Shown here: one piece after another, positions 2,784 through 22,364 of the stretch
Position numbering within the stretch: position 1 is the stretch's first letter
Layout of the letters: every line of letters begins with the position of its first letter
Assembly: GCA_025455785.1 (NCBI GenBank)
Contig: JALOLV010000001.1
Location: 1-32,471, forward strand
Source of the DNA: Spirosomataceae bacterium
GTDB taxonomy: Bacteria > Bacteroidota > Bacteroidia > Cytophagales > Spirosomataceae
Length of the DNA stretch: 32,471 nucleotides
Direction: 5' to 3'
The notes under the pieces: model-generated
Databases searched by the model: none
What the model was told of the DNA's origin: nothing
What the model saw: only the letters and a program-made list of their open reading frames with translations
Position numbers and translations under genes: made by a program

Positions 2784-5700
2784 TTATTTTGGGAAGATTA
2801 TTATTCGTGCTAACTGTTTGATAGGATTTAAAAGGGATGCTTCAGCTCGTGTACCTAAAAAATTAGTTGCTTGAGATGGAAAATTAGCAAGTTGCCATTT
2901 ATTAATCTTGATTAAATCGAGAGTCATTCCTTGTATTGCAACATGCCCCTCAGTATCAAGTAAGCCTGATAGTGCTTTCTCAGAAGCCTCGGACGAAAGA
3001 CCAAGGTTATTGTGTATAACATGTCCCATTTCATGAGTCATTGTATATGCTAATAATTCTTTTGATGCAAAAGATGCCTTTGAAAAGAATATGCTTTGTT
3101 TAGAGCCACCCTTCCAAACCCTGTAATAAGTAACAGCAAGAACATCATCACCTTTAGAATTAGTAAATGAACCTCTTGAATTTACCTTATAGCTTTTTGG
3201 CATCCAATCTTTTGAGATATTAGAAACACCTTTGACATCTGAAAAATTTAAGTCTTTCATTTCTTTTAAATATTCGTTTGTATAAGGAGCTTCTTCACCA
3301 CCTTTTATTGCTGGGACTTCAGATGCAAGCAATAAATGAGGCTCTCTATATCCCGTCCAAATATTTGCCCCTAATTTATCGGCTTGCAACCCTCCTGAAA
3401 TACCGCCAAAAATACTGCCACCAATGGCACCCATTAATGCTCCTCTACCAATATTATTACCATTTAATGCTGCTCCCAAAGTTCCTGTGATAGCTCCGCT
3501 TCCTGCACCGTATGCCATACCGGGTAGAATACCTATTGGAGCATAAAACCCTAATATTCCCCCAACCGCTCCTGTGATAGCCCCCTTTCCAAAACCACCC
3601 CAGTAGCTTTTGCCCTTTCCTACGCTTAATGTGCCACTTATATGTCCACCCATGAAAGCACCGATTGCCATCGCTATTAGTACAGGGTTTCTACCATCTG
3701 GGTCAATATAACTCAGAGGGTTATTCATCATCCCGGCATACCCACTCAAAGCGTAATTATCTACTGGGTCTATGCCATCAAAACGCCCTGTGTTTGCATC
3801 GTATCCTCTCGCATGAAAATCATAAGAATTGTACCCAAAAGCATCAATGTATTCTTGGCTCTGGTAAAGCCATTGCCAAGAGCTATCCACCCCGATTCCT
3901 TCCAAAAGCGTTCCGAATGGGCTATAATGGTTTTCTTGGGCAATGTAAACAGAATCATTGAGTTTTTCAAAGATAACCCTTGTATTACCCAGATGGTCGT
4001 TGATAAAATACTGATAATGAGAACCTAATGTGTCAAATCTAATTTTGCCTTCATCGTGCAGGGCGGCTGTGAGGGTATCATTACGGTATAGTAAACTACC
4101 AACATAGTCTGTTCGGATGGTGCTACTCCCATTCACAATCTTTTGGTAGAGCTTCTGCCCATCGGCAGTATAAACGTTCTCAATGTACTTATCGGTATCA
4201 AAGAAAATATGGCTTGGTAGCCCTAAATAGTTATAACGAATACTATCTATACCTTTGTTGGCATCTGTTTTTAGGCTACCATCGGGGTAGTAAGTATAAG
4301 CCCCTACTCCACCCGTTAGAGCTTCTTTAAAGCCGATATTATCGTTGGCGGCATCGGTAAGACCTGTCAATTGGTTTTGATAGGTGGGGTATATATAACT
4401 TAAACTGTCAATCCGTTGCCAATTATTAGTAGATTCTAAGCCAAATCGGTTGAGTTTCTCTATATTACCGTTGGCATCATAAGCTACATTTTCATCATAT
4501 TTCTCATTCGTTTTACCTTTAAAAGCTGCTTTGGTGTAGCGTTGCGATTTATCATAGTCATACGTAAAGCTCCGCAAAGTAGTATCTCGGCTTGTTTTCC
4601 ATGATTGTTTACTTAGGTTTCCATCAAAATATCTACCGTCTTCAAAATAATCAAGTTTCATTGAGAATACTTTGCTACTATCCAGTTTACCCGCAGGAGT
4701 CAGGTTAATACCTCTGAGATTGCCCCTTATATTGTAGCTGTAATCAACCTTTTGTATGCCGCTACCGATAAAAGCAAGGTAGTTGGTATCGGGCAAAATG
4801 GTTGTGCCAGGTTTGAGCAAAATGTATTTTTTGGCCACATCAATCACCCGATTATTCAAGGTCTCATTTTGCCTGATGATACTGTCTTTTTGGGCTTCGT
4901 TGAGATTTTTCCTAATCATCCTCCCAATTTCGTCATATTCATAGGTTGCCAGTAGCTCGGGCGAATGACCTGTAAAATAGTGTATTGCTTGGGTTTTACG
5001 TCCTACATGGTCGTATTGATAGGTCGTTTTGCTTTCAATTTCTGAAGAATACGGAATACTGCCCGTTGGTTTGCGATACAGCGTTCGCTCTTCTAATAAC
5101 TGACCTATAAAATCAAATACAAAATCATTCTGGTTAATATCTCCAAAGCGGTTTTCGGCTTGTGATTGTATCAATCGGTTTTGGTCATCGTAGTACATGG
5201 CGGTACGTAACCATGCTTGGGTATCTAATCGCCGAACTTGATTCCCCGTTTGGAGCCCCTTCACATTGCCATATTTGACACCTCTGTAAGGTACAAAATT
5301 TAATGTATCGGCAGGTTTCCATGAGTAATCATCATAGTAGTTTACGACCATCACATCTGGTTCTATAACGGGTATAGAACTCGGGAAACTACGATTGGTA
5401 TATCCCAGTATTCCGCCTGTGGGCGTAGTTTCTTCATATTGTTTTATTAGTGTGAGTGTATCAAATGTAGCTTGTAATGTGGCTCTGGTACTGTTATTGG
5501 GTAGTATTCCTGCCAGAGCCATTCTGCCATAAGCATCGTATTTACTAAATCTCCATTGGTTATTGGTTCTGATTCTGGCATCCTGCTCTAAAACGATTTG
5601 CCCTAAACGATTATAAACTACATAGCTCCAACCTGCATCCGGTGTGTGTTTTTCGATTATTCGATTTCGTTTATCATATTTCATCATATATACACCCACC

Positions 5701-8700
5701 AAATAACTACTTGAAGCGATATTGGTATTGTCGGGTATCACTCCATACATTTTCGGAGGAATGATTAGAGCTAAACGACCTAAATAGTCGTAAACGTAAG
5801 TTGTGATTAGATAATGACTTGTTGATGTACCATCACCTGTAAATTGCACATGTTTTTCAAGGATTCTACCATCTTTGTCGCTGTAACTTATAACAGCTTG
5901 CTGTTGCTCATCAATACCTACGGTTTTTAGAATCTGATTGCCTGAATATGTATTGATATTGAGATTACCGTTATAATCTAATTCATATTTGGCAATTCCA
6001 AAATTGCCTGTTTCAAACTTTTGTTCGGTCTCTCGATTAGGTCTAAACGCTGCTCCTACGCCGATACCCTTAAATGCCCTACTTAATGGTGAGTTTTCGT
6101 ATTGTGTTACTTCGGAGTAAGGAGCTGTGTCGTTATAAAAAGTTTGAGCCAACGATTGACTACCCGATTGGAAATTCCCCGTTGCAATTGGGCTAACGAC
6201 TGGTAAAATATTCTTTTGAGGGCGACCAAAGGTATCGTATTCGGGTGTACTACTCAGCAAATCTTTAGCTTTTGGCGATGCTTTGTAGGCAACAGATTGT
6301 AATGTACGCCCGCTACCGTCACTGTAAGATACAGAAGTACTAACTTTTTGATAGTCTTGATAGACATTTCGGGTACTATCTCTTGGGCTTCTGACAACAA
6401 CCCTATTTTTTGTAGTATCAGTATTGAATGTGCCTGATGTATTGATTAGATTTTGTTTGAAATAAGGGTATTCATAGTGGGATAGAATATAACCATCCTT
6501 GTCGGTTATTTGCTTTAATTGCCCGACTTTATGTAACTCACTATCAGTATAATATTTGTAATTAATGGCTAATTTATTCGGGCTTATTTGTTTAGACAAA
6601 CCAAAAATTTTGGTTTCATATTCATATTGGGTTGTATCAATGACTACACCACCAATATTATTGATACTCCTTATAGGTAAAACCCCTGCGGTATCGTAAT
6701 CTGTACCATTAATTGAAGCCCCAAAGCCTTTTACCTTTTTTGAAAATCCTTTGTTGTTGTAGTCTTGATATTCTACGATTGGATAAAAATTGGTGTCTCG
6801 AACCAGCGAATCATCACTCACTCGATTATAGATAACATCACTAAATATTGCCTCTCCAATATTATTTAATGCGAACGACTCTTTTAGAAAGTAGCCAAAT
6901 TGGCTATTTGTGGTTACATTTAAGCTATCATAACGATTAAATGCTGCTTGTGCCACTCGTGTACCATTTTTACTGACTATTTCGATGGTAGGAGTTAATA
7001 TGTGTCGCCGTTGCATTTCATAAATGGCTCGGGCTTGTGTGCCTAATCGGGGAACATGGATAAAGTATTCGGTGGTATCACAATTATAAGGAGTACCATA
7101 CTCAGGGTCATAACAAATGCGAGGTATTAGAACTGTATCTAAACCAAAATTAAAATCTGCAATATATTTTGTTAAACTACTTAGTTGGTGGTTTTGCCCG
7201 TCACTACTCTCAATTTTTACAAGGAAATTATGTTGCCCAGGGTATGTATTGTGGTATCCTGATAATATTTCATCTTTGTATGTAAACTCTTGTATTGTTG
7301 TGATAGGGTTAGTACCATTTTGAGAAAACACTTTACTGGTTTGTTTTTCTAAGTGATACCGTTTAAATAATTGACTGTACTCTTCTAAGAAAACACCTCC
7401 ACAACAAGAAGCATAGCCCAAGTTATAACCGTTTACTTTAAAGACCTTACTTGAAAATGTATTATCAACAGAATTGCCTTGTAAGGTCGTGTACGCAAAT
7501 GTCTGAACGGATAAAGTATCCCCATTTTGATTTAATATTTCGGTTCTAATGGGGTTTCCACTCTTAAAATCATGGTAAACAATTACCCCCTCTTTTATTC
7601 TCTCAGGTTGATAGTAGTATGTCGTATCACATATCTGATTAGGATATTCTCCCGTACAATTAACAACGATTCTTTCAGTAGTTATTTCTGTTGTATCATG
7701 GTCAAACGTGTAGATAGTTTTACCTAACGTATTATCTATATTATTTTTTATTTGCTCAACCACTCTGGTATATCCCACAACTGGTCGTCCTATTTCCGCA
7801 AATAATCGGTCATAAATACCTGAATTAGCACCTATTGCTGCAAAGTTATTTTTGAAACGATAAATGGGCTTCATACTAAGAAAACCAGACGGACGGGTAT
7901 CGGGTAATACGTAGCTGTAAGACTTGATGGTTTCGATGCCAGAAATCAAATCTTTGTTTTTTATTTCTTTAATTCTCGCTCCACCAATTGGCTTATATGT
8001 ACCATTGCTATTTTTATAATTACGAGCTTCGTGTAGCTCATAAATAAACTTTGTATAACTACCAGTAGAAACGACTACACTATCTAAACTACCATAAAAT
8101 GCAAAATCTATATTTGTTTCTCTATTACTTGTATTAGGAGTACAGCCAGAAAAGAATGAGTCTCTCGGGATTAGCCCTGTTAGAAAACGATTGCCTGTTG
8201 AGCCATTTGGAAATCCCCAATGGTCTATTCCGTAGTTTAATCTACTTTTGCCATTAAATGTAGGAGAATCACCATTGTACCTAAACCGATAAGTGGTTTT
8301 ATCTGGGAAAGTTACTTTTTCTAACCGTAGTCGTTTTGTATGAGAATAGCCTACATCATCGTGAGTATATCCGCTTGGTAGGTCGTCCTCAAAGCCTGTA
8401 AAATGACCGTAGTCAAACTGGTATTTTAGAGTATCAGTGGGATTTACCTTGTCCATTACTGTCATTTCAACCAATTTTTTTGCATTAGATTGGCTGGTTG
8501 GGTTTTCATCCCAAGAATCAAGGTCTAATCTTGGAGGGGCGTTAATATAACAAATTTCGTTTCCTGATTCTGTTTCAAAACATTCTCTGAATCTTCGGTT
8601 GAACTCAACCTTTTTATGGTCTGTTGTGATACTGCCCAATGAAGCCCCCTCAACGTAAACCTTATTGATACGTTTATCTACTTGTGCTGGGGTTGGGCAT

Positions 8701-9680
8701 ACCCCAGATGATTGGCTTTCTGCTAATTTAAAAAATGAGTATTGGACTACATCGTATGTAAAGTTTATCTCTTGCCCATAAGGTGTGATGATTTTTCGTA
8801 GATACCAAGCTGATGTTACTGATTCATTTTTCCAAAAATGATTCCATCGGCTTGCACCTGGATAAATATTTTCATCTTGTGCTGTTTTGACATCTACCTC
8901 TGTACTTTTTTCATAAGCCCCATCACCAAAAACATATTTTGTTCCATCGGGCATCAAAACATCAAACCTTGTGAATTTTCCTACATCTGTTGTTCCATCA
9001 AATTCAAAAATGGGTATTATCTCAATATCTGTATCGGGGAAAAATATAAACTTTGATACTCCTGAATATTTATACATAAATTTATAGGACTGACCATTGA
9101 TATTCATGTAAAAAACATCGGGTTCTGTATCATCATCTACGGTGCTTAAACCTGTATAGCCATACCAATAATACCCTTTTCTTTCATAACTACTCGACCA
9201 CGTATTAATATCAAACTTACCCTCGTCTGGAATCCCCCTTACTTGTCGGGTAATCATACCCCCAGCCATTAAAGACCAATTCATTCCACTCCATGAAGCA
9301 ACCTCGTGTAATTTCATACCAGAGGCATTGTAATTTAAAGCAATTGGTACATTCAATGCACCTTCTTGCAAATTATAGAGTGGTAATGGAACGATGGCAG
9401 TACCAGTAAATTGATTTACTGCAATATCTTTAAAGCGATTTATGTCTGCGGCTTCTGGAGGGGCTGCTGGTGCAATTCCCGAGGGTAGGTTTCCAAAAGA
9501 AGAGATAGTAGGAATACCCAGATTTGTAGGTTTGTTAGATTCAAATTGTTTGAGTTCTTCGGGTGTAAAAGTCCGAACTGGTGGATAACCGTGATTTGCG
9601 ACCTTAACTGAGATAACTTGCTGTGCAAAAGTAATAAGGTTTACCAAGACTAAAATTAACAGTAAAATTACTTTTTTCAT
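2784..9680 (-). CDS. Large secreted RHS-repeat protein with RHS-associated core and a metallopeptidase-like C-terminal tip (MTHEMGHVIHNN)
   Basis: Signal peptide MKKVILLLILVLVNLITFAQQ; many YDxxGRxxxxxx repeats; core motif DHLGNTRV...YSPFG...GYNSYDFHARGYDANTGRFDGIDP; HExxH in the variable tip. Confidence 0.92.
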   Translation of the reverse strand: MKKVILLLILVLVNLITFAQQVISVKVANHGYPPVRTFTPEELKQFESNKPTNLGIPTISSFGNLPSGIAPAAPPEAADINRFKDIAVNQFTGTAIVPLPLYNLQEGALNVPIALNYNASGMKLHEVASWSGMNWSLMAGGMITRQVRGIPDEGKFDINTWSSSYERKGYYWYGYTGLSTVDDDTEPDVFYMNINGQSYKFMYKYSGVSKFIFFPDTDIEIIPIFEFDGTTDVGKFTRFDVLMPDGTKYVFGDGAYEKSTEVDVKTAQDENIYPGASRWNHFWKNESVTSAWYLRKIITPYGQEINFTYDVVQYSFFKLAESQSSGVCPTPAQVDKRINKVYVEGASLGSITTDHKKVEFNRRFRECFETESGNEICYINAPPRLDLDSWDENPTSQSNAKKLVEMTVMDKVNPTDTLKYQFDYGHFTGFEDDLPSGYTHDDVGYSHTKRLRLEKVTFPDKTTYRFRYNGDSPTFNGKSRLNYGIDHWGFPNGSTGNRFLTGLIPRDSFFSGCTPNTSNRETNIDFAFYGSLDSVVVSTGSYTKFIYELHEARNYKNSNGTYKPIGGARIKEIKNKDLISGIETIKSYSYVLPDTRPSGFLSMKPIYRFKNNFAAIGANSGIYDRLFAEIGRPVVGYTRVVEQIKNNIDNTLGKTIYTFDHDTTEITTERIVVNCTGEYPNQICDTTYYYQPERIKEGVIVYHDFKSGNPIRTEILNQNGDTLSVQTFAYTTLQGNSVDNTFSSKVFKVNGYNLGYASCCGGVFLEEYSQLFKRYHLEKQTSKVFSQNGTNPITTIQEFTYKDEILSGYHNTYPGQHNFLVKIESSDGQNHQLSSLTKYIADFNFGLDTVLIPRICYDPEYGTPYNCDTTEYFIHVPRLGTQARAIYEMQRRHILTPTIEIVSKNGTRVAQAAFNRYDSLNVTTNSQFGYFLKESFALNNIGEAIFSDVIYNRVSDDSLVRDTNFYPIVEYQDYNNKGFSKKVKGFGASINGTDYDTAGVLPIRSINNIGGVVIDTTQYEYETKIFGLSKQISPNKLAINYKYYTDSELHKVGQLKQITDKDGYILSHYEYPYFKQNLINTSGTFNTDTTKNRVVVRSPRDSTRNVYQDYQKVSTSVSYSDGSGRTLQSVAYKASPKAKDLLSSTPEYDTFGRPQKNILPVVSPIATGNFQSGSQSLAQTFYNDTAPYSEVTQYENSPLSRAFKGIGVGAAFRPNRETEQKFETGNFGIAKYELDYNGNLNINTYSGNQILKTVGIDEQQQAVISYSDKDGRILEKHVQFTGDGTSTSHYLITTYVYDYLGRLALIIPPKMYGVIPDNTNIASSSYLVGVYMMKYDKRNRIIEKHTPDAGWSYVVYNRLGQIVLEQDARIRTNNQWRFSKYDAYGRMALAGILPNNSTRATLQATFDTLTLIKQYEETTPTGGILGYTNRSFPSSIPVIEPDVMVVNYYDDYSWKPADTLNFVPYRGVKYGNVKGLQTGNQVRRLDTQAWLRTAMYYDDQNRLIQSQAENRFGDINQNDFVFDFIGQLLEERTLYRKPTGSIPYSSEIESKTTYQYDHVGRKTQAIHYFTGHSPELLATYEYDEIGRMIRKNLNEAQKDSIIRQNETLNNRVIDVAKKYILLKPGTTILPDTNYLAFIGSGIQKVDYSYNIRGNLRGINLTPAGKLDSSKVFSMKLDYFEDGRYFDGNLSKQSWKTSRDTTLRSFTYDYDKSQRYTKAAFKGKTNEKYDENVAYDANGNIEKLNRFGLESTNNWQRIDSLSYIYPTYQNQLTGLTDAANDNIGFKEALTGGVGAYTYYPDGSLKTDANKGIDSIRYNYLGLPSHIFFDTDKYIENVYTADGQKLYQKIVNGSSTIRTDYVGSLLYRNDTLTAALHDEGKIRFDTLGSHYQYFINDHLGNTRVIFEKLNDSVYIAQENHYSPFGTLLEGIGVDSSWQWLYQSQEYIDAFGYNSYDFHARGYDANTGRFDGIDPVDNYALSGYAGMMNNPLSYIDPDGRNPVLIAMAIGAFMGGHISGTLSVGKGKSYWGGFGKGAITGAVGGILGFYAPIGILPGMAYGAGSGAITGTLGAALNGNNIGRGALMGAIGGSIFGGISGGLQADKLGANIWTGYREPHLLLASEVPAIKGGEEAPYTNEYLKEMKDLNFSDVKGVSNISKDWMPKSYKVNSRGSFTNSKGDDVLAVTYYRVWKGGSKQSIFFSKASFASKELLAYTMTHEMGHVIHNNLGLSSEASEKALSGLLDTEGHVAIQGMTLDLIKINKWQLANFPSQATNFLGTRAEASLLNPIKQLARIIIFPK

Positions 9681-9985: not shown

Positions 9986-10648
9986 TTATATTTCGTTTTT
10001 TATAAACCTTCTTAATTCAACAGAATATACAAGTAAAATGTCATTTACTTGTTTTAATGAACTGACTAATTCTTGATAATTTGGATATAATTTTTGTATT
10101 TCTTGTGGTGTTTTATTTTTATTCTCATTATCCTCTGAATGATTGGTATACCATTTTTTAAATTTTGCTTGGTGTTCAGTTAAATGAGGTCTAAGTCCTT
10201 TATTTAGTATATCAGTAGTTAGTTCTATAAGTTTATCTGATGCTGAACTTTTTTGTAGTAACTCGCCAGAAATGTTTTTCAGTTCTTGCCTGATTACTTG
10301 AAATAATGAGTACCAAGAATTATAGACCTCAATTATTAAGTCATGGTTTTCATCGAATGGGAGTGCTGCTTTTCTCGTTATTAGCTCAACGTATATTTTA
10401 TGTGCTATTTCGAGATTTGTAAAGTTTCGCACAATATCATATTCAACTTCTCCTCCTCCCACACTGACTTTCATTTTAACAGGGATAATTTGCGAATAAT
10501 GATTGTTTTTACTTTTGACAGATTTAATTATCAGCCAAATAATCAAACCTATAACGGATAATATAAAAACAATAAATAAACTTATTTGTATTGTAAAACC
10601 CCAGGTTTCGGGGTTGAAAGAAAGGTCGATTATCTTTATATCATTCAT
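9986..10648 (-). CDS. Membrane-anchored protein (one strong N-terminal TM helix), last gene of the hypermodification/TIR operon
   Basis: TM segment ISLFIVFILSVIGLIIWLIIKS; ATG at 10648 overlaps the upstream stop. Confidence 0.7.
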   Translation of the reverse strand: MNDIKIIDLSFNPETWGFTIQISLFIVFILSVIGLIIWLIIKSVKSKNNHYSQIIPVKMKVSVGGGEVEYDIVRNFTNLEIAHKIYVELITRKAALPFDENHDLIIEVYNSWYSLFQVIRQELKNISGELLQKSSASDKLIELTTDILNKGLRPHLTEHQAKFKKWYTNHSEDNENKNKTPQEIQKLYPNYQELVSSLKQVNDILLVYSVELRRFIKNEI

Positions 10649-11270
10649 TGTAGCTATATCGTTCAAAGTTTTCGTTAAAACTTATCGGGTCGGCGTGAAT
10701 ACCCATTTCAAATTTTGAAAGCCAATCTAAAAAGCTATTAATTTCTTCAAAGTTAGTAATCGTTTTATACCCCTGACCCTTTTTTAGAAAAGATTCGTGC
10801 AACTGTTCAGGAAGTTTACGAGCAAGTCTTCCAAAATAATAAAAATTTTCTGATACTAAGACAAAGGAACTTTTAGTATCTCGTGCGATATTTACACTAT
10901 TCGGACTACCATCTTCATTACTATGATGAGAGTTTTGTTGAATCCAAATATCGTTCTCCTTGTGATAGATATTATCTCCATACATTTGGACTAAACTACC
11001 ATTAATTACGGGTTTTTTTAATTCAAATCGAGAATCTTCCCAATATTGATTATACGTTAATTTTTCATCTACCCTCATAGCATAGACTAACTTACCCTCA
11101 AAATCACCATCACTTCCTGCAATGTCTTTGCCACCTGTTCCGATAATCCAATCACCAACATTTGCATTTTGTCTTATATCTGCTTTACATGTTGCAAGTG
11201 TACATAAACCATTAAAAGGATTTGGGGCAAACCCATAATCACGAACAATGACATAAGAATATATTTTCAT
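10641..11270 (-). CDS. Nmad2-like protein (nucleotide modification associated domain 2)
   Basis: MKIYSYVIVRDYGFAPNPFNGLCTLATCKADIRQNANVGDWIIGTGG matches the characteristic N-terminus of this family as I know it; start probably ATG at 11270, not the track start 11279. Confidence 0.7.
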   Translation of the reverse strand: MKIYSYVIVRDYGFAPNPFNGLCTLATCKADIRQNANVGDWIIGTGGKDIAGSDGDFEGKLVYAMRVDEKLTYNQYWEDSRFELKKPVINGSLVQMYGDNIYHKENDIWIQQNSHHSNEDGSPNSVNIARDTKSSFVLVSENFYYFGRLARKLPEQLHESFLKKGQGYKTITNFEEINSFLDWLSKFEMGIHADPISFNENFERYSYNE

Positions 11271-11272
11271 AC

Positions 11273-11767
11273 TTAACAATTACTAACGATTCGTGTAAAA
11301 GGACTATTCCATGAAGAGTTTTCTCCATCTTCCCATTTAGGAGGTGTCCCACCGCCCTCCAATGCTTCAATTATTTTATTACCTGTCCATCCAACCATTG
11401 CATGGCCATATTTTGCAAGTTTTTCGGGAATATCAGATTGTCCAGCACCATTAATATAGACGCCTACTATACGTTTACCTTTTTTGTGAGCTTGTTCAAT
11501 CTCCCAATCAACCCATGGTCTTGTATGTGTTTCTGGACCAACTAAAACAATGACTGTACCAGACCAGTGTATTCTAAGTCGAAGCAGTCTTTTAATGTAA
11601 TCGGGGTTTGATGCTTGATTCGGCTTTGTGCTATCAATAGAGCTATTTTTAAGCTGATACCCTCTATTACGCAATAGTGTTTTTAATCGCCCTATATGTT
11701 CTTCATCTTGCCCAAAATGACTTATGAAAACATTTTTTGCTTTGCGTTTTATTTTATCTCCAACCAT
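11273..11767 (-). CDS. TIR-like protein of the ThsB/DUF1863 type
   Basis: KNVFISHFGQDEEHIGRLKTLL...YIKRLLRLRIHWSGTVIVLVGPETHTRPWVDWEIEQAHKKGKRIVGVYINGA. Confidence 0.8.
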   Translation of the reverse strand: MVGDKIKRKAKNVFISHFGQDEEHIGRLKTLLRNRGYQLKNSSIDSTKPNQASNPDYIKRLLRLRIHWSGTVIVLVGPETHTRPWVDWEIEQAHKKGKRIVGVYINGAGQSDIPEKLAKYGHAMVGWTGNKIIEALEGGGTPPKWEDGENSSWNSPFTRIVSNC

Positions 11768-11769
11768 TT

Positions 11770-12057
11770 TTAGACTTGTTTATCTTCATCAATAATAATT
11801 AACCCAATTATTGCATATCCGATAATATCTCTCAATGTATCTTCAATACTTTCAAAGTTAGGCGTCTCATTTTTAAGTGATTTTTCTACAAGGGTTTTAT
11901 ACCGACTAACTTTATCCCACAGGTGTACCATATTACCCAACATTCCTAAATCAAAACTTGCTCCCCCATAATCTTGATTTTTTTGAATTAAGATTTTTAT
12001 TATTTCATCTGTTATTAGCCTAACTTTTTCCTCTGTCATTGGATTATGTCGTTTCAT
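11770..12057 (-). CDS. Nmad1/DUF1599-like small protein
   Basis: QKNQDYGGASFDLGMLGNMVHLWDKVSRYKTLVEKS....ESIEDTLRDIIGYAIIGLIIIDED. Confidence 0.65.
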   Translation of the reverse strand: MKRHNPMTEEKVRLITDEIIKILIQKNQDYGGASFDLGMLGNMVHLWDKVSRYKTLVEKSLKNETPNFESIEDTLRDIIGYAIIGLIIIDEDKQV

Positions 12058-13057
12058 AGCTTAATTGATTTAAAATTGGATTAGCGAATTTAGGTTTTTT
12101 ATTTAGATTAAACTTATAAAAGACTTTTGCCCAATCATTTAGAAAATCATCATTAAAATAAGGCTCAGAGTCTAATAGTTTCAATCGGGTTTTTTCTTCG
12201 TATTTCTCTAATTCTTTAATTTTTTCATTAAACTCTGAAAGGTTGGAAAAGGTGGGTGTGGAATAGTCGAAATGATTATCTATTGGGTTTTTGATTTTTG
12301 CCATTTCAACAACCATTGGCTTAAAATCATCATAGAAATGGAAGTTATTAACAATATGGTAGTATTCTCCAATTGGGATGTTTAGAATATATGAGAAATA
12401 TTCTTGAATAAATGTAAAATTAAAAATATTTACCCCACTTGCCCCCCAAATGAAATCATTTGAACGCATATGAGTTATTAAATTAAGCCGATTATCTTTC
12501 GATAGAATAAATTGTAAACTAACAGTACATGGAAAATCTTTTGTGGTTTTTAAATGTCCATTCTCATCGAAACAATCTTTTGTTGGGTCTTCAATTGTAA
12601 TAATTGCTTGGCGTGTAGTTTTCTCTTTTTGAAAGCTCTTCTCTACAAAATCAAATTGGTCAATTACTCCAACTTTGTCAAGGATACTAATTCTATTTTT
12701 ATCAATTTTGTAATCATTAAGGATACCATTTCTATATCTTATTCTTGCCCCATATCCAGCCCTCATATAATCATTTTCAGCATATTCGTAAAGTTTTTTT
12801 GCATAATGCCCAATTAAAGACATATCATTCCTACCAAGCCCAATCCAGAGTGATTCAGCATAAGGTAAGCTGAACTTCCACTTCCGTGGACTTATTGTCA
12901 CTAATCGAGCTTTTGGGTTACTAATTTTTATTATTACTGGTTCTGGGAGTTCATAGCAAATATGATTTCGTACATTTCTTATTTGATAATTTGACAGCAA
13001 AAGGTCGGACATCCCTACTAAAAAAGAGTTAATTCCGTTGAATTCATAGGTTTGCAT
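12044..13057 (-). CDS. Thymidylate-synthase-like protein (TS / pyrimidine hydroxymethylase superfamily)
   Basis: Active-site-like DFPCTVSLQF and RSNDFIWGASGVNIFNFTFIQEY (compare TS PPCHxxxQF and RSxDxxxGxPFNIAxY). Confidence 0.75.
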   Translation of the reverse strand: MQTYEFNGINSFLVGMSDLLLSNYQIRNVRNHICYELPEPVIIKISNPKARLVTISPRKWKFSLPYAESLWIGLGRNDMSLIGHYAKKLYEYAENDYMRAGYGARIRYRNGILNDYKIDKNRISILDKVGVIDQFDFVEKSFQKEKTTRQAIITIEDPTKDCFDENGHLKTTKDFPCTVSLQFILSKDNRLNLITHMRSNDFIWGASGVNIFNFTFIQEYFSYILNIPIGEYYHIVNNFHFYDDFKPMVVEMAKIKNPIDNHFDYSTPTFSNLSEFNEKIKELEKYEEKTRLKLLDSEPYFNDDFLNDWAKVFYKFNLNKKPKFANPILNQLSYETT

Positions 13058-14025
13058 GGTTCTATCCTTTCATTTATTCCCCATTTGGGTGGAAAAAAGT
13101 AATTAATTTGGTTCAGATTAGGGGAATTATATTTTTGTTTAATTCTAACATTATCTACTTGCAAACTCGGTAATGCAACTCTTAGATATTTATCTGTTTC
13201 GCAAAAACAATTTTGAAGGTCTATTAGTGTTAAATCTCTTCCAAATAAGTTAGAAAAACTTGTGTAACCGAATTCTTTTTGATATTTTTCAAAATTATCC
13301 TGCGTGTACTTAATAGCATCTTCCAAGCTATTTTTTCCTAAATCTTCAAAGCACTTTTTTATGCCTCTAACAGCACCTATACCAGCCTTAACAAAAGAGT
13401 TTTCATCAAAGTTTATTACTGGAGAATAATTTAGGTCTATTGAATATTGATAAGCTAAAAAATCGCCAATAAAAGAGCAATCATTCAATATATTATAAAC
13501 TTTTTCTAATGATTTGGCTGTAATTATTTTTTTTATTTTTTCACTTTTCATAATCTCAGTTTCGACCATTTTTAACCATTTTTCGTGTTTTGAATCAAAA
13601 TGGTCATATTTTCTATGCGAGCCAGTCATCATGTAAGCATTGTTAAAAATAGGTTTATTTTTAATACGTTCAGCAAGTAATGAAGAGATTTTATCGACAT
13701 TAAAATTTGATGTATTAAGCGGTCCAATCCGATTTTCTAAATACTCCCATGTTTCTATTTTATTGAAAATTTTGAATACTAATATTCTCAGGATAATATC
13801 TTCTTCTTTCATTTTTGTACAATCAACACCGTATATTACATTACTAATTAAGTATTGACTAACCCTATCACATGCCCTATAAACATTCGTAAATTTATTA
13901 TTTGCGAGAATTTTATCTTTTGAGAATGGGTAGTTTTCACCATTACATTTTTTCCAAAAAATGTTCATTCTTTCTTGCACAAAATAGAAATAATACTTGT
14001 ATGCTTCGGGTCTAATCTTTATCAT
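13018..14025 (-). CDS. DNA-base hypermodification-type protein (HMUDK-helical / alpha-glutamyl-putrescinyl-thymine pyrophosphorylase clade)
   Basis: YFYFVQERMNIFWKKCNGENYPFSKDKILANNKFTNVYRACDRVSQYLISNVIY is the characteristic 'FTNVxRxxDRVSQ' N-terminal block of these families; 40-bp overlap with the TS-like gene. Confidence 0.7.
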   Translation of the reverse strand: MIKIRPEAYKYYFYFVQERMNIFWKKCNGENYPFSKDKILANNKFTNVYRACDRVSQYLISNVIYGVDCTKMKEEDIILRILVFKIFNKIETWEYLENRIGPLNTSNFNVDKISSLLAERIKNKPIFNNAYMMTGSHRKYDHFDSKHEKWLKMVETEIMKSEKIKKIITAKSLEKVYNILNDCSFIGDFLAYQYSIDLNYSPVINFDENSFVKAGIGAVRGIKKCFEDLGKNSLEDAIKYTQDNFEKYQKEFGYTSFSNLFGRDLTLIDLQNCFCETDKYLRVALPSLQVDNVRIKQKYNSPNLNQINYFFPPKWGINERIEPCKPMNSTELTLF

Positions 14026-14043
14026 TTTGAAAGTTGAGTTTAT

Positions 14044-14443
14044 GGGTATAATTAAGCATTTAGGTGTAAAGTTACAAGGTAAAAATATAATACGCTTATA
14101 ATCAGCAAGTTAAGCCTTTAAATGTCATTTTTTAATATTTCAACAAAAATGAATAATTTATACAAAAAATTTGATTGTTTGTTTTGTATAAAATAAAAGA
14201 ACGTTTGGTATAAACAGGATTTGCATAAAAATGACTTTATTTTTATGCAAAAAGTGTTTAAAAATATTCATTTTATAACTTTCTTGTAACAAATCTAAAT
14301 TTAAAACTCGTTTCTTAAAGCATTTCAGTACTCAATATCATCAAACTAAAAACAATAAAGCATCTTTTTGAATATAAACTATTGATAATAAATCAATTAC
14401 ATAGGTTTCATGTAACTTTACGCCTAAATGTTTAGGAACACCC
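14044..14443. mobile_element. MITE-like element copy A (~400 bp, TIR about 32 bp, no transposase ORF)
   Basis: Ends gggtataattaagcatttaggtgtaaagttac / gtaactttacgcctaaatgtttaggaacaccc; reverse-complement homologue of 31816-32181. Confidence 0.85.
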
Positions 14444-14990
14444 TACGTTGGTATTACGATTTAATCTCTGGTATTTCGTTGTAATACGTCTGGTGTTACG
14501 ATTTAATCGTTTGGTATTACGTGTAATATGTCGGTATTACGATTTAATACGTCGGTATTACGCTGTATTACGTCTGGTATTACGTCGGTATTACGATTTA
14601 ATACATCGGTATTACGATTTAATACGTCTGATATTACGATTTAATCTCTGGTATTACGCTGTAATATGTCGGTATTACGATTTAATACGTCGGTATTACG
14701 ATTTAATACGTCGGTATTACGCTGTATTACGTCTGGTATTACGCTGTAATACGTCGGTATTACGCTGTAATACGTCGGTATTACGATTTAATACGTCGGT
14801 ATTACGCTGTATTACGTCTGGTATTACGCTGTATTACGTCTGGTATTACGCTGTAATACGTCGGTATTACGATTTAATACATCGGTATTACGCTGTAATA
14901 CGTCGGTATTACGTTTGGTATTACGTCGGTATTACGCTGTATTACGTCTGGTATTACGTTGTATTACATCGGTATTAGACGGTATTATGC
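14444..14990. repeat. Tandem array of about 28 GGTATTACG-headed units, mostly 21-22 bp (e.g. GGTATTACGCTGTAATACGTC, GGTATTACGATTTAATACGTC, GGTATTACGCTGTATTACGTCT) with some 10-12 bp half-units
   Basis: Manual parsing of every unit; GTATTAC-GCT-GTAATAC dyads. Confidence 0.95.
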
Positions 14991-15583
14991 TTTTTTAAGT
15001 AATTATATACTGTCCCATAGGCTACACCTGCACGAATACTTATCTGGTTCATTGATAATCCTTGTTTTTGTAATTCAAGGATTTCGTTGAGTTTATGTAT
15101 AGGTAGCTTCGGTCTCGAAATATTCTTACCTTGTACTTTGGCTCTTTGCATTCCTGCCTTTACTCGCTGACTTATCAACGAACTCTCAAATTGTGCCAAA
15201 GAAGCCATGACATGAAAAATCAATTCACCCGTTGGGGTTGTGGTGTCAATGTTTTCTTGGTAAGAAATGAAATCTACTCCCAAAGTCTGAAACTCTTTCA
15301 GGGCATTGACCAATGCTTGAGTCGAACGGGCAAATCGGTCGTATCGCCATACTAACACAACATCCAGTTTGCGTTTTTTGGCAGCATCCATCATCTGTTT
15401 GTATTGGGTTCGTTCTTGGGTAGTCCCCGAGGCATAATCTACGTACTCTCCCACAATTTCAAAGTTTCGCCTTTGGGCATATTCTCTCAATTGTAAAAGT
15501 TGGGTTTCGGGGTCTTGTGTTTTGTCGGTAGTAGATACCCTTGCATAGAGGGCAACACGATAATTTTTTGGGGTTTGATACAT
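14975..15583 (-). CDS. Small serine recombinase (resolvase/invertase type) with C-terminal HTH
   Basis: VALYARVSTTDKTQDPETQLLQLREYA; VWRYDRFARSTQALVNAL; GELIFHVMASLAQFESSLISQRVKAGMQRAK; ATG at 15583 preferred over TTG at 15598. Confidence 0.95.
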   Translation of the reverse strand: MYQTPKNYRVALYARVSTTDKTQDPETQLLQLREYAQRRNFEIVGEYVDYASGTTQERTQYKQMMDAAKKRKLDVVLVWRYDRFARSTQALVNALKEFQTLGVDFISYQENIDTTTPTGELIFHVMASLAQFESSLISQRVKAGMQRAKVQGKNISRPKLPIHKLNEILELQKQGLSMNQISIRAGVAYGTVYNYLKKHNTV

Positions 15584-15597
15584 GATAATAATTATCA
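15583..15597. promoter_or_regulatory. TGATAAT-A-ATTATCA dyad overlapping the recombinase start codon; possible autoregulatory/recombination site
   Basis: Perfect 7-bp arms with 1-nt centre. Confidence 0.4.
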
Positions 15598-15925
15598 AAA
15601 AGGATTTCCTTTACAAAGTTCCTTTTTAATCTCGTAAACACCTCATTTTCAAGTATATTTTTTACCGAAATTTTGACACCCATTTTGATAAGTGCTTTCG
15701 ACAGATTTGACTCACTGATTTTTAAAAATATAATTTGGCAATATTATTATTAGCCAATATAATTACTTATAAAAACTCTTAATTAATGATAACAAATTCT
15801 TAACATTGGATTTGGTGCAAAAAAAAATATTTAATCTATCTTTAGATAAAAAAATAAAACCCAAAAGCCAACATAAAAATTAAAAGTCCGACAACCTAAC
15901 AAATCAGTTTTAAATCGGATGAAAC

Positions 15926-17627: not shown

Positions 17628-18860
17628 CTACTCTACCACCACTTGCCCATTCATCAGCATTGGTAAAAGCCAATCTCGTAAGCTGGAAAGTTGTTGGTTT
17701 TCTTTTTGTTTTTTATGAATAAGTTGGTAAAAATTGCTCAATTGGGTCGAAATTGCTATCAATAAAGTATCCTCTTTTGGTAATGCTATTTTTAGGTTTA
17801 AAATATCATCTACATTAATTGATGGATAAGATGAAACACTTGTATCTGCAATTGTTTGTAAGAAATCTACTGTTATCCTATTGGATAAAAAACAGTAGAT
17901 AAAATCATTCAAAACTGTATTTTTTTTATGACTGATAACTGCAAAACCCGTTGAAACAATCATATTCTCAACAGGTTCTTTTATTATTCCATAATGCTCT
18001 TGATTGGGTCTTACAGTTGAGTAAATGATGTCATTTTTTTTGACTATTCTTTTTGCTCTACTTGGTAGATTATTTTTTAAATCATCAATCAGTATCACAT
18101 TATCTATCTGATTTTTTGTAATATTACTTGTATCCAAGTAGTTTACATAAGAAAAATTACTTGATGAGTTCAATTGGTATTGATTTGCGTTACACATAGA
18201 CTTCAATTCTCCAACTTCCCACCCCTCAGGAATTTCTCTTTTCAATTCTTCATTCCAAACCATTGCACCACCAGAAGTTTTGTAGGGTTTGCCTTCGACA
18301 TCTGGGAAATCAAACTGCACAAACCAATAATCATACAGTGTTTTTGCCATGGCTTCCAGCTCGGCATTGATGCGGTTGTTGAGTTCTATTTTAGCATCTA
18401 AGGCGGAAAGGACATTGGCGATTTTTTGTTGGGTAGATAGTTCAAAATCAGGTATTAAAAAATCTAAAATTTGGTTTTTATCTCCACGTGGCATTTTCGT
18501 TCCTTTTGAGCCACGCATCATGTGGTCAAAGAAATCATCTCTAAAAAGGGTGTAATAAATGTACTTTGGGTAGTATTCTTTATTTACACTTAAAGTCAGT
18601 ACATCTGCCGAGCATCCTCCATCTCTATCAGCAAACCATATTTTTTTAAGATATGGGCGTATATTTCCAATAAGTATATTTTCAATTTTAAAAGCGGGTA
18701 TTGTTCCACTTTGGGGTGGAAGGTTAGATGCTAATGTAATTCCTTCTTTATTTTGGAGAAGGTTATCAGTTGTTATAAAATTTTCGAGACTTACATTTTC
18801 TATTTTAACTCTCTTATCAGAATAATTTGCGACTTTACTCAACTTCACTAACTTCCTCAT
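17628..18860 (-). CDS. hsdS: Type I restriction enzyme specificity subunit
   Basis: Two TRD-like halves with conserved LSALDAKIELNNRINAELEAMAKTLYDYWFVQFDFP and C-terminal QQLSSLRDWLLPMLMNGQV. Confidence 0.95.
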   Translation of the reverse strand: MRKLVKLSKVANYSDKRVKIENVSLENFITTDNLLQNKEGITLASNLPPQSGTIPAFKIENILIGNIRPYLKKIWFADRDGGCSADVLTLSVNKEYYPKYIYYTLFRDDFFDHMMRGSKGTKMPRGDKNQILDFLIPDFELSTQQKIANVLSALDAKIELNNRINAELEAMAKTLYDYWFVQFDFPDVEGKPYKTSGGAMVWNEELKREIPEGWEVGELKSMCNANQYQLNSSSNFSYVNYLDTSNITKNQIDNVILIDDLKNNLPSRAKRIVKKNDIIYSTVRPNQEHYGIIKEPVENMIVSTGFAVISHKKNTVLNDFIYCFLSNRITVDFLQTIADTSVSSYPSINVDDILNLKIALPKEDTLLIAISTQLSNFYQLIHKKQKENQQLSSLRDWLLPMLMNGQVVVE

Positions 18861-18949
18861 TTTCTATTGTTATTGATGGGTTGTTTTTAGTATTTTTTCT
18901 TGAAAAGTTTTTATTGTTCTTATTGCACAAACTCAGCTACCGAATTCGT

Positions 18950-20047
18950 TTAGTTTTTCATTTCATCCTCAATAAATCTCAGAAGTGTCTGTTTATCAGG
19001 CAATTGTAGCATATACTTCGAGATAAACAGTTCGTTTTCAAGCCCAGCGGTGGCATATTCTACGAGGGCATCGTCTTTGTCGGCACACAAAATCAGTCCT
19101 ACGGGTGGGTTATCGCCTTCGGTCATTTCGTTTTTTCGGTAGTAGTTGAGATACAGCACCATTTGCCCCGAATCGGCATGGTCAAATTTACCCACTTTCA
19201 AATCAATCAATACGTGGCATTTCAGAATACGGTGATAAAACACCAAATCTATTCGGTAATGCGTATTGCCAAAGGTGATTCTCTTCTGTCGAGCTTCAAA
19301 ACAAAAGCCCCTGCCCATTTCGGTCAAGAAAGTCTGCAAGTGGTCAATGATGGCGGTTTCGAGGTCGGTTTCGCTGTATTCTGTTTTTTCTTCTAAACCC
19401 AAAAACTCCAGAAAATACGGGTTTTTTATTAAATCTTGCGGGTTGGGAGCTTGTGTCTCTTTTATCTTTTGAATTACCGTCGCTTTGTCGGTCGAAAGCC
19501 CAGTTCGTTCAAACAGCAGGGTATCAATCGCACGGGCCAATTCTCTCACTTTCCAAGCATTTTTGATGGTTTCTACCTCATAAAACCTCCTTTTGAGGTC
19601 GGATTCGAGCCGAAGGAGTTCGATAAAGTGCGAAAACGATAAGGTATTAATGAGGGTCTCGGCAGGGAGCAACAGATGCTCATAGGAATCATTAGGAGGC
19701 GTCATTAGATTTTGTTTCAATTGGTCAGACGCTGTCTGACCAATTGAAACAAACAAAGCTCTCTTGAAGATAACCTCTCCTAAAACCAGATAATTCTGGT
19801 AAAATTGCCTGAATAACTTTAGGTTGGTCAATGACATCCCAGCAATATGTTTAAGTCTCTTACTGAGTTCGGTAAGAGTTTTATTACCATAGATTGCTTT
19901 TTCTTCGCCTTCTTGTTCAAATTCGACAATATAAAAGCCAATCAGCCAATTTCTGACTGTTTGGAGGGTGTTTACCTGCTTAACCGCCTGTGTCGAGGTT
20001 TGCTGATGAGTAATCTCTATACTTTGTATGAGTTCTTCAAATTTCAA
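18950..20047 (-). CDS. YhcG/DUF1016-family PD-(D/E)XK nuclease-like protein
   Basis: QTVRNWLIGFYIVEFEQEG....YGNKTLTELSKRL; RIDLVFYHRILKCHVLIDLKVGKFDHADSGQMVLYLNYY. Confidence 0.85.
   Translation of the reverse strand: MKFEELIQSIEITHQQTSTQAVKQVNTLQTVRNWLIGFYIVEFEQEGEEKAIYGNKTLTELSKRLKHIAGMSLTNLKLFRQFYQNYLVLGEVIFKRALFVSIGQTASDQLKQNLMTPPNDSYEHLLLPAETLINTLSFSHFIELLRLESDLKRRFYEVETIKNAWKVRELARAIDTLLFERTGLSTDKATVIQKIKETQAPNPQDLIKNPYFLEFLGLEEKTEYSETDLETAIIDHLQTFLTEMGRGFCFEARQKRITFGNTHYRIDLVFYHRILKCHVLIDLKVGKFDHADSGQMVLYLNYYRKNEMTEGDNPPVGLILCADKDDALVEYATAGLENELFISKYMLQLPDKQTLLRFIEDEMKN
19711..19753. repeat. Perfect 20-bp inverted repeat with 3-nt spacer inside the DUF1016 gene: TTTGTTTCAATTGGTCAGAC-GCT-GTCTGACCAATTGAAACAAA
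   Basis: Direct reading of both arms. Confidence 0.95.
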
Positions 20048-21668
20048 ATCGTAGCCCCTCCAAAGCCTTTTCTATTTGGGTTTCTAAAGCTCTTGATTCG
20101 GCAAACATATTGCCCAAATTTGCCTTAAAACGTTCCATTTTAGCCTTAAATTCTTCGGGAGAAATATCAATGTGTTCGATTTTTACATCAAAATACTGCC
20201 CCGCACTAAATGAATAATTCTTTTCGGCGATTTGTTCGTAGCTCAACACCACCGAGAAATCTTCAACCGCTTTATGCTGATTAAACGTATCAATGATTTG
20301 CTGCTCTTCTTCTTCGGTCAATACCGTTTTTTGGTTTTTGCCTTCTTTTACAATTTTTCCGAGTTTCGAGGCATCCATCAATACAATATCGCCCTTTTTG
20401 TTGCCACAATCAAGAAATAAAATCGAAACATTGGTACCTGTCGTAGCAAAAATATTGCTCGGCATACTCACTACCCCACGTAGCATTTTATTATTTACCA
20501 ATCGCTCCCGAATCTTACGCTCAATACTACTTTGGGCAGTTATAAAACCCGTAGGAACAACGATTGCCGCTTTACCAGATTTTTCTTTGAGTGAAAACAT
20601 AATATGCTGAATAAATAGCGGATAAATCGCCATTTTGTCTTTATCCTTGTTGGGGACATTGGCTACCCCAGCAAAAAAGCGAGCATTATTATTTTCGGCA
20701 ACGAGGTCTGAATGGTATTCGCTAAAATCGAGCTTAAACGGAGGGTTCGACACGATATAGTCAAACTTCATCAGCTCTTCTCCTTCTTTGTGATAAGGCG
20801 AAAGAATGGTATTACCCTGAATAATATTGGGTATTGAGTGAACGAGGTTATTCAGAATCAGGTTTAGCCGCAACATAGCCGATGATTTCTGCGAAATATC
20901 CTGTGAGTAAATCGTACAGCGGTCTTCGCCAATAGCATGAGCCAAATTCATTAAAAGTGTACCCGAACCAGCCGAAGGGTCATAGCAGGTCACATTCTGC
21001 ACAGGAGCATCAACCAAGCAAGCCGCCATGATTTTGGCTACAGCGTGAGGGGTATAATATTCGGCGTATTTGCCGCCACCATCTTTGTTATAATCTTTGA
21101 TTAGGTACTCAAAGATTGTAGAGAAAAAGTCGAATTTTTGACTAAAAATATTCTCAAAACTAAAATTTACCAACTGATTCACTATCGCTTTGCAAAAATT
21201 ATCACGCTGCGAAGGGTCAGCTACAAATTGGCTGAGTTCATCAAAAAGTGTAATTTTTGAGCCTGTACCCGTTTTTACCGAAAAAATCTCGTTATTGAAA
21301 ATCCCAATATCACGCAGGGTATCATCAAATATTTTAGCAAACTCTTCACTGTTTTGTTTATCGAACAGATACGATAAAAAATGCTCACGCTTTAGCTTCG
21401 CACTATCGGGGCTTAGTTGCATCAGCAACATCTCGTAGTCTTGGTCGGTATATTTTTTTATTTCGGCTTCCCAATTATCCGATTTTTGTAAGTTTGGGTC
21501 TATCTGCTTTACTTCATAGCCAAACTTATCATTCATGAATTTGTAGAGAAAAACTTGGGTAATTATCTTAAATTCGTTGCCATCATTGCCCAATCCGTAA
21601 GAAGTACATACACTTTTGAGGTTATCAATTAATAATTTGGTTTTTGTTGTAAAATCTTGTATCTGCAT
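20037..21668 (-). CDS. hsdM: Type I restriction-modification methyltransferase subunit
   Basis: DPSAGSGTLL and DYIVSNPPF motifs; HsdM N-terminal helical region. Confidence 0.95.
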   Translation of the reverse strand: MQIQDFTTKTKLLIDNLKSVCTSYGLGNDGNEFKIITQVFLYKFMNDKFGYEVKQIDPNLQKSDNWEAEIKKYTDQDYEMLLMQLSPDSAKLKREHFLSYLFDKQNSEEFAKIFDDTLRDIGIFNNEIFSVKTGTGSKITLFDELSQFVADPSQRDNFCKAIVNQLVNFSFENIFSQKFDFFSTIFEYLIKDYNKDGGGKYAEYYTPHAVAKIMAACLVDAPVQNVTCYDPSAGSGTLLMNLAHAIGEDRCTIYSQDISQKSSAMLRLNLILNNLVHSIPNIIQGNTILSPYHKEGEELMKFDYIVSNPPFKLDFSEYHSDLVAENNNARFFAGVANVPNKDKDKMAIYPLFIQHIMFSLKEKSGKAAIVVPTGFITAQSSIERKIRERLVNNKMLRGVVSMPSNIFATTGTNVSILFLDCGNKKGDIVLMDASKLGKIVKEGKNQKTVLTEEEEQQIIDTFNQHKAVEDFSVVLSYEQIAEKNYSFSAGQYFDVKIEHIDISPEEFKAKMERFKANLGNMFAESRALETQIEKALEGLRFEI

Positions 21669-21672
21669 TATT

Positions 21673-22322: not shown

Positions 22323-22364
22323 TGCTAAGGTTTATTTTATTGATTAAAATTAATCATTTGAACG

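What the first reader, a model, noticed from the sequence alone, without database searches (positions are those of the whole stretch)
9986..14025. Six-gene operon joining DNA-base-hypermodification enzymes to a TIR protein and a membrane protein
Seen: six minus-strand ORFs with overlaps or a 2-bp gap throughout, no room for internal promoters, and a single upstream region. Knowledge: HMUDK/aGPT-Pplase-like, TS-like and Nmad1/Nmad2 families are best known from phage pathways that make and elaborate 5-hydroxymethylpyrimidines. Inference: on a plasmid with no phage polymerase, combined with a ThsB-type TIR and a TM protein, the module may make or sense a modified pyrimidine nucleotide, either as an immune signal or to mark DNA, with TIR/TM as sensor or effector.
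Basis: partly seen in the sequence, partly recalled or inferred. Interest (0 to 1): 0.9.

Follow-up and report, generated by a model that had tools for sequence, protein, structure and literature searches.

The report
TIR immunity operon with pyrimidine module
A plasmid-borne bacterial operon joins a TIR immune protein and its constant partner Nmad2 to swappable enzymes that handle modified pyrimidines; in every relative examined the TIR protein carries a cysteine at or within five residues of its end, which suggests that the pyrimidine enzymes may act on that tail during phage defence.

Summary
In detail: six tightly packed minus-strand genes (HMUDK_hel, thymidylate-synthase-like, Nmad1, ThsB-type TIR, Nmad2, one-TM protein), with the order conserved in other Bacteroidota. 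Comparison of 35 Nmad2 loci from at least six phyla shows a modular system. TIR+Nmad2 is the constant core. The base enzyme is HMUDK_hel or a uracil-DNA-glycosylase, never both; the nucleotide enzyme is TS (with or without Nmad1) or MazG_C, never both. Downstream partners are the TM protein or TIR/SLOG pairs. It sits in a plasmid defence island. Main new fact: all 35 non-redundant core TIRs have a cysteine within five residues of the C-terminus (30 as last residue); 0 of 53 control TIRs end in cysteine. The 'kinase' label is misleading: the protein is only the helical part of phage 5-hmdU kinases, without P-loop, in the fold class of amino-acid:DNA transferases. Best reading: a Thoeris-like TIR defence system gated by a modified-pyrimidine pathway, possibly through modification of the TIR tail, as nucleobase-protein conjugation serves type IV CBASS. 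Function and chemistry are inferred, not shown.

The parts
13018..14025 (-). HMUDK_hel / aGPT-Pplase clade-1-like protein (335 aa), all-helical, no Walker A motif; base-handling enzyme
   Evidence: Pfam PF18723 1e-88; no G....GK[ST] motif in 27 relatives; AF2 pLDDT 89.9; viral fold hits: SP10 5-hmdU DNA kinase 1e-11, amino acid:DNA transferases 0.015-0.03 with probability 0.99-1.00; PDB best hit 8z2m 5-PmdU glycinyltransferase, weak E 0.4
12044..13057 (-). Thymidylate-synthase-superfamily enzyme (337 aa), predicted (d)UMP 5-hydroxymethylase or methylene-transfer enzyme; overlaps the previous gene by 40 nt
   Evidence: PF00303; best solved-structure relatives are MilA CMP 5-hydroxymethylase 9e-32 / 1e-31; catalytic Cys, Arg-Ser-Asn-Asp and His-x-Tyr motifs invariant; Asn210 aligned with the Asp of MilA
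11770..12057 (-). Nmad1 (DUF1599), 95 aa, possible small NTP-pyrophosphohydrolase-like protein
   Evidence: PF07659 4e-8; found only in loci with TS and never with MazG_C; homology to MazG not established
11273..11767 (-). ThsB-type TIR protein (164 aa), conserved Glu89, about 35-residue tail after the last invariant Trp, ending in Cys164
   Evidence: PF08937 6e-23; PADLOC ThsB profile 4e-50; invariant Glu and C-terminal Cys
10641..11279 (-). Nmad2 (212 aa in the ORF, likely start Met4), constant partner of the TIR; weakly PUA/ASCH/EVE-like fold, possible modified-base reader
   Evidence: PF18753 2e-75; AF2 pLDDT 87.9; many of the fold hits listed are ASCH, EVE/THYN1 and YTH domains, none significant
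9986..10666 (-). One-TM protein (226 aa in the ORF, likely start Met7) with a conserved domain (GLRPHLTxxQAxxxxW); presumed interchangeable effector
   Evidence: relatives in L002, L004, L006, L008, L009, L075; absent where TIR/SLOG pairs occupy the locus; no known family
14026..14443 (-). Sole upstream intergenic region of the operon
   Evidence: sequence; followed by a 21/42-bp tandem array at 14444-14977

Best explanation
A TIR-based anti-phage operon of Thoeris-like logic. SHOWN from sequence: a constant TIR+Nmad2 core; swappable pyrimidine enzymes (HMUDK_hel or UDG; TS with or without Nmad1, or MazG_C); swappable downstream partners (TM protein, TIR+SLOG pairs); and an invariant cysteine at or near the TIR C-terminus after a variable tail. 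INFERRED: on infection the TIR uses NAD to make a signal or deplete NAD, and the TM protein damages the membrane (abortive infection). The pyrimidine enzymes do not hypermodify the genome; they make or handle a C5-modified pyrimidine nucleotide that licenses or marks the core. Nmad2 recognises that pyrimidine, free or bound. Most specific version (about 0.22 on its own): a C5-methylene pyrimidine is attached to the thiol of the TIR's terminal cysteine, as deazaguanine is attached to the CD-NTase N-terminus in type IV CBASS. The confidence below is for the general claim: TIR defence gated by the pyrimidine module.
For: Recurrent linkage in at least six phyla. 34 of 35 core loci hold at least one pyrimidine enzyme within 6.5 kb; the exception, L125, is a short locus. 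TS and MazG_C exclude each other (0 of 33, p 4e-8), as do HMUDK and UDG (0 of 31, p 1e-4), and TIR38x+SLOG2 and TIR38y+SLOG3 travel as pairs; p-values are not corrected for relatedness. Terminal Cys in the TIR: 35/35 within the last five residues, 30/35 exactly last; controls 4/53 and 0/53; the sequences form 29 clusters at 80% and 19 at 60% identity. A strongly degenerate TIR (L142) keeps it, and a protein with no significant TIR match that precedes Nmad2 (L011) ends HKCR. TIR Glu invariant in the 35. Chemistry precedent: TS superfamily closest to MilA; HMUDK fold class includes amino acid:DNA transferases and the 5-PmdU glycinyltransferase. Biological precedent: Cap9/Cap10 deazaguanylation and QatBC with an essential terminal motif on a flexible tail (PMC11996544, PMC13279940). 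Defence setting: type I R-M, PDC-S02, PtuB-like and PDC-S39 matches nearby, plasmid Rep3. DefensePredictor reports E. coli defence systems with 5-hydroxymethyluracil-kinase, TS and NMAD domains (PMC13092281).
Against: No experiment on any TIR-Nmad2 locus was found. The terminal Cys could have another role (metal, disulfide, self-ADP-ribosylation, partner docking). UDG replacing HMUDK_hel and MazG_C replacing TS make a single chemistry hard to draw; loci without TS have no obvious source of a C5-methylene group. No kinase is encoded to make a 5-phosphomethyl group. Fold links of Nmad2 and HMUDK to solved structures are below significance.
Confidence: 0.55

Rival explanations
1. Surveillance of phage pyrimidine chemistry: the enzymes and Nmad2 recognise or process unusual pyrimidines in phage DNA or nucleotide pools (uracil, 5-hydroxymethyluracil, altered dNTPs) and so trigger the TIR.
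For: HMUDK_hel and UDG, two kinds of base-handling protein, replace each other; Nmad2 has weak resemblance to modified-base readers; HMUDK_hel-family proteins occur in many phages, and the SP10 match is to its 5-hmdU DNA kinase.
Against: A TS-like enzyme with an intact active site suggests that something is made, not only sensed; does not explain the invariant TIR C-terminal Cys.
Confidence: 0.2
2. Free modified pyrimidine nucleotide as a diffusible activator or inhibitor: TS/Nmad1/HMUDK make the ligand, Nmad2 and the SLOG domains sense it.
For: SLOG partners in many loci; TS(+Nmad1) or MazG_C fit nucleotide-pool enzymes; nucleotide pools and signals are a known focus of defence (PMC12265719, abstract).
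Against: No nucleotide ligase or cyclase in the operon; the TM-effector version has no SLOG or other obvious ligand domain; leaves the TIR Cys unexplained.
Confidence: 0.13
3. DNA marking for self/non-self: the pathway puts a modified pyrimidine in host or plasmid DNA, and Nmad2/TIR respond to DNA with or without it.
For: The same families belong to pathways that make hypermodified thymine in phage DNA (PMC6449724); type I R-M lies on the same contig.
Against: No polymerase, nuclease or DNA-targeting enzyme in the operon; no P-loop kinase part; HMUDK and TS are each replaceable in related loci.
Confidence: 0.07
4. Not an immune system: a mobile metabolic or phage-derived remnant that keeps these genes together for nucleotide metabolism.
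For: Phage homologues of HMUDK_hel and TS.
Against: No Nmad2 relative in 50,697 phage records; TIR, SLOG and phospholipase partners and the defence-island setting.
Confidence: 0.05

Closest known systems
Thoeris (ThsA/ThsB)
   Same: ThsB-type TIR with conserved Glu; TIR + SLOG partners in many related loci
   Different: No ThsA match in the window proteins scanned; constant Nmad2 partner, pyrimidine enzymes, C-terminal Cys tail
Type IV CBASS (Cap9/Cap10 deazaguanylation) and qatABCD
   Same: Nucleobase-biosynthesis enzymes inside a defence operon; a flexible terminal tail with a conserved terminal residue on the core immune protein
   Different: Pyrimidine not 7-deazaguanine families; C-terminal Cys not N-terminal Gly; TIR not CD-NTase; conjugation not shown
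Phage thymidine hypermodification (M6, ViI, SP10, phiW-14; 5-HMUDK, aGPT-Pplase/AADT, TS-like hydroxymethylase)
   Same: HMUDK_hel and TS-superfamily enzymes together
   Different: No P-loop kinase part, no DNA polymerase or later modification enzymes; coupled to TIR/Nmad2/TM on a bacterial plasmid
DefensePredictor systems with 5hmdUk, TS, dNMPk, NMAD (validated) and aGPT-Pplase, MazG, MazG-C, UDG, NMAD (predicted)
   Same: Same domain families already tied to anti-phage defence in E. coli
   Different: Gene composition per system is only in a figure and supplements not readable here; 'TIR' and 'Thoeris' do not occur in its main text
SLOG/TIR nucleotide-centric conflict systems (Burroughs et al. 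2015, cited in PMC13092281; paper not held)
   Same: SLOG cluster 2/3 and TIR partners occur as alternative modules
   Different: Could not be compared in detail; TIR-Cys/Nmad2 core not checked against that paper

Membership tests
Thoeris | ThsB-type TIR with conserved Glu | tested here: met
   PF08937 6e-23, PADLOC ThsB 4e-50, Glu invariant
Thoeris | ThsA effector (SIR2-SLOG, macro-TM or other known type) | tested here: not met
   no ThsA-type match among the operon proteins or the ten further window proteins scanned; TM protein matches no known family
Thoeris | NAD-derived signal activates the effector | not testable with these tools
   needs biochemistry
Phage thymidine hypermodification pathway | TS-superfamily pyrimidine 5-hydroxymethylase | tested here: inconclusive
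   closest to MilA, intact catalytic motifs, but TS versus hydroxymethylase not decidable from sequence
Phage thymidine hypermodification pathway | 5-hmdU DNA kinase with P-loop domain | tested here: not met
   only the helical domain, no Walker A in 27 relatives
Phage thymidine hypermodification pathway | modified base present in DNA | not testable with these tools
   needs LC-MS
Nucleobase-protein conjugation systems (type IV CBASS / Qat) | conserved terminal acceptor residue on a variable tail of the core protein | tested here: met
   Cys within last five residues in 35/35, exactly last in 30/35; that it is an acceptor is inference
Nucleobase-protein conjugation systems (type IV CBASS / Qat) | QueC-family ligase or 7-deazaguanine chemistry | tested here: not met
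   operon families are TS, HMUDK_hel, Nmad1, Nmad2
Nucleobase-protein conjugation systems (type IV CBASS / Qat) | covalent base on the protein, required for defence | not testable with these tools
   needs intact-mass MS and phage assays

The most novel reading that the evidence does not exclude
The operon covalently attaches a C5-modified pyrimidine (or its nucleotide) to the C-terminal cysteine of a TIR protein: a second, chemically unrelated kind of nucleobase-protein conjugation in immunity, read by Nmad2, with interchangeable enzyme sets (TS/HMUDK_hel, MazG_C/HMUDK_hel, MazG_C/UDG) that supply or control it.
Probability: 0.22. Interest if true: 0.92.

Novelty: new variant of a known kind. 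Interest (0 to 1): 0.74.

Why it matters
It defines a recurrent TIR-Nmad2 immune core whose partners follow clear swap rules, which predicts functional equivalence between enzymes not known to be related (HMUDK_hel and UDG; TS and MazG_C). The invariant C-terminal cysteine is a precise, single-residue handle: one mutant and one intact-mass measurement would say whether pyrimidine chemistry in defence acts on protein, on DNA or as a free signal. PADLOC's ThsB profile also matches this TIR, so automated surveys might record such loci as incomplete Thoeris.

Tried and rejected
Kinase reading of the first gene: rejected as an assumption (no P-loop; helical domain only). Nmad1 as a MazG relative: hhalign local match weak (probability 2.8%, E 0.016), left open. 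HMUDK versus UDG homology: none detected. E. coli counterpart of the DefensePredictor system: a distant DNA search with the Psychrobacter locus found nothing, only the centre genome itself among 274 gammaproteobacterial genomes has the family, and the paper's supplements cannot be read here. TM protein: no family; weak similarity to SipD/IpaD coiled coils taken as spurious; weak HEC-07 hit (0.004) not pursued. Promoter scan: no excess over shuffles. Key reviews and enzymology papers (Burroughs 2015, Iyer 2013, Lee 2018 and 2021, Wen 2024) are not held, so novelty against them is unchecked. Structure prediction of the TIR tail in complex with HMUDK_hel, TS or Nmad2 was not possible. Two Nmad2 searches failed because 'of' needs a genome handle.
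Full report
WHAT IS THERE. Six minus-strand genes fill 9986-14025 with junctions of -40, -14, +2, -7 and -26 nt. Pfam gives HMUDK_hel, Thymidylat_synt, DUF1599 (Nmad1), ThsB_TIR, Nmad2 and an unassigned one-TM protein. The window is a 32-kb contig of a fragmented, 66%-complete assembly. It carries a Rep3 replication initiator and a type I restriction-modification set, and other window proteins match PADLOC's PDC-S02, PtuB and PDC-S39 profiles: a plasmid defence island.

LINKAGE. A protein search with the first gene in species-representative genomes returned 42 loci. The first five genes occur in the window's order in L002, L003, L004, L006, L008, L009 and L075; the TM gene follows in all of these except L003, and in L009 only after two intervening ORFs, one of them a second TIR. 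L005 has the first four genes before its contig ends. L010 and L018 keep HMUDK-TS with Nmad1-TIR-Nmad2 on the opposite strand. The 40-nt HMUDK/TS overlap recurs in most of these loci.

A MODULAR SYSTEM. I widened the sample with Nmad2, HMUDK and TIR searches in whole genomes and plasmids and built profiles for each component. In 35 loci with a strong Nmad2 match the TIR+Nmad2 pair is the constant element (in two of them, L011 and L142, the TIR is degenerate). The base enzyme is HMUDK_hel (25 loci) or a uracil-DNA-glycosylase-superfamily protein (6), never both. The nucleotide enzyme is TS (17) or a MazG_C protein (16), never both; Nmad1 is present only with TS. Downstream partners are the TM protein (7), TIR38x with SLOG cluster 2, or TIR38y with SLOG cluster 3. 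Patatin or annotated cGAMP-activated-phospholipase genes lie nearby in some plasmid loci. Nmad2 proteins with lower scores occur without TIR in other settings and look like a separate class. The p-values treat loci as independent and are therefore optimistic.

THE TIR TAIL. Every core TIR has a cysteine as its last residue or within the last five. In 35 non-redundant core TIRs it is exactly last in 30 and within the last five in all 35. In 53 control TIRs (other TIRs of the same loci and weaker TIR hits in Bacteroidota genomes) the figures are 0 and 4 (Fisher 2e-20, not corrected for relatedness; the core sequences form 29 clusters at 80% and 19 at 60% identity). The exceptions to 'exactly last' read CN, CK, CAA (two) and CGARG. 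The tail is 32-38 residues after the last invariant Trp and mostly variable apart from a DG motif. The Glu of the W-x-x-x-E motif is invariant in these 35. Two departures are telling: in L142 the first half of the TIR is unrecognisable but the protein still ends NKC, and in L011 (Psychrobacter) the protein before Nmad2 has no significant TIR match and no Glu in the alignment, yet ends HKCR. One caution: the profile used to call core TIRs was built from Cys-ended sequences, but the gap between core hits (E < 1e-50) and the next hits (1e-14) in a 249-genome search is far larger than one column can explain, and all four strong hits there lie beside Nmad2.

THE ENZYMES. The first protein is all-helical (pLDDT 89.9) and lacks a Walker A motif in 27 relatives. 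Against viral structures it matches part of the 637-aa 5-hmdU DNA kinase of phage SP10 (1e-11) and stand-alone 'helical domain' proteins, then amino acid:DNA transferases (E 0.015-0.03, probability 0.99-1.00); a phage relative is annotated aGPT-Pplase clade 1. The best solved-structure hit is the 5-phosphomethyl-dU glycinyltransferase 8z2m, then HhH glycosylases, none significant. So 'kinase' should not be carried over. The second protein belongs to the TS superfamily with its catalytic motifs; the nearest solved relative is MilA, a CMP 5-hydroxymethylase. Asn210 stands where MilA has Asp; from established TS enzymology (own knowledge) Asn there favours uracil and Asp cytosine, so a (d)UMP-type substrate is predicted. 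Nmad2 (pLDDT 87.9) has no significant fold match; many of the weak hits are ASCH, EVE/THYN1 and YTH domains, folds that bind modified or ordinary bases. I treat this as a lead only.

HOW IT MOST LIKELY WORKS. The TIR, the SLOG/TIR partners, the defence-island setting and published protection by E. coli systems with 5-hydroxymethyluracil-kinase, TS and NMAD domains (PMC13092281) make an anti-phage role likely. Interchangeable downstream proteins are a usual sign of effectors, so the TM protein is the presumed effector here. The pyrimidine module is nearly always present but its enzymes swap, which fits a gating step more than genome modification. The invariant TIR tail cysteine suggests where the gate acts. 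In type IV CBASS, Cap9 joins a deazaguanine to the N-terminal glycine of the CD-NTase and Cap10, a transglycosylase-family protein, binds it (PMC11996544; PMC13279940); in qatABCD a flexible tail with a conserved terminal motif is essential. Here a thiol at a chain end lies in an operon with an enzyme family that generates C5-methylene pyrimidines and a structural relative of enzymes that join nucleophiles to such carbons. From general knowledge, the exocyclic methylene intermediate of TS can be trapped by thiols. Covalent pyrimidine attachment to the TIR is therefore the most specific hypothesis; I give it about 0.22, against 0.55 for the general claim that a pyrimidine module gates a TIR defence system. 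Nothing here shows chemistry or protection.

COMPARISON AND NOVELTY. It works like Thoeris in having a ThsB-type TIR but lacks a ThsA match, so it is not filed as Thoeris. It shares enzyme families with phage thymidine hypermodification but lacks the kinase part and any DNA-directed enzymes. Its logic resembles type IV CBASS/Qat without their families. The domain families are already linked to defence by DefensePredictor, whose figures and tables I could not read, and the key bioinformatic papers are not held, so I rate it a new variant of a known kind.

Noticed in passing
window 14444-14977: Array of 21/42-bp tandem repeats (GTATTACGCTGTAATACGTCG type) between the operon's upstream region and a serine resolvase gene; possible iteron-like or recombination site.
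   Followed up: no
window 14975-15598: Serine recombinase (Resolvase PF00239 1e-45) directly beside the repeat array.
   Followed up: no
window 17628-25199: Type I restriction-modification set (S, M, R) with a YhcG/DUF1016 PDDEXK protein (PADLOC PDC-S02 4e-128) between S and M, and a PtuB-like protein between M and R.
   Followed up: partly
window 29880-31721: 613-aa protein with DUF4209 and a PADLOC PDC-S39 match, a candidate defence protein.
   Followed up: no
window 2784-9680: 2298-aa RHS/YD-repeat-like protein (judged by eye from the translation) on the same strand next to the operon.
   Followed up: no
L020-L039: Many cyanobacterial (mostly Nostocales) loci carry HMUDK_hel without TIR/Nmad2; in L021 it is followed by a 172-aa protein and a MazG-like gene.
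   Followed up: partly
L017, L041, L087: HMUDK_hel followed directly by a radical-SAM-like gene (annotated so in L087, by eye in the others), with TIR-Nmad2 upstream in L087 and L017: another nucleobase module.
   Followed up: no
L143 6262-9913: TS-like protein, TylF-type O-methyltransferase and HMUDK_hel in a row beside TIR-Nmad2 on a Sinorhizobium plasmid.
   Followed up: no
L069 8285-9559: Protein with weak nucleoside 2-deoxyribosyltransferase similarity downstream of TIR-Nmad2, a possible further effector type.
   Followed up: no
L011 5720-6172: Protein without a significant TIR match occupies the TIR position before Nmad2 and ends HKCR.
   Followed up: yes
L076-L084, L126-L128, L144-L145, L147-L153: Lower-scoring Nmad2 proteins without a TIR partner; in several Bacteroidota loci they lie next to a conserved protein beginning MKLILSRKGFDS: apparently a second Nmad2 class.
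   Followed up: partly
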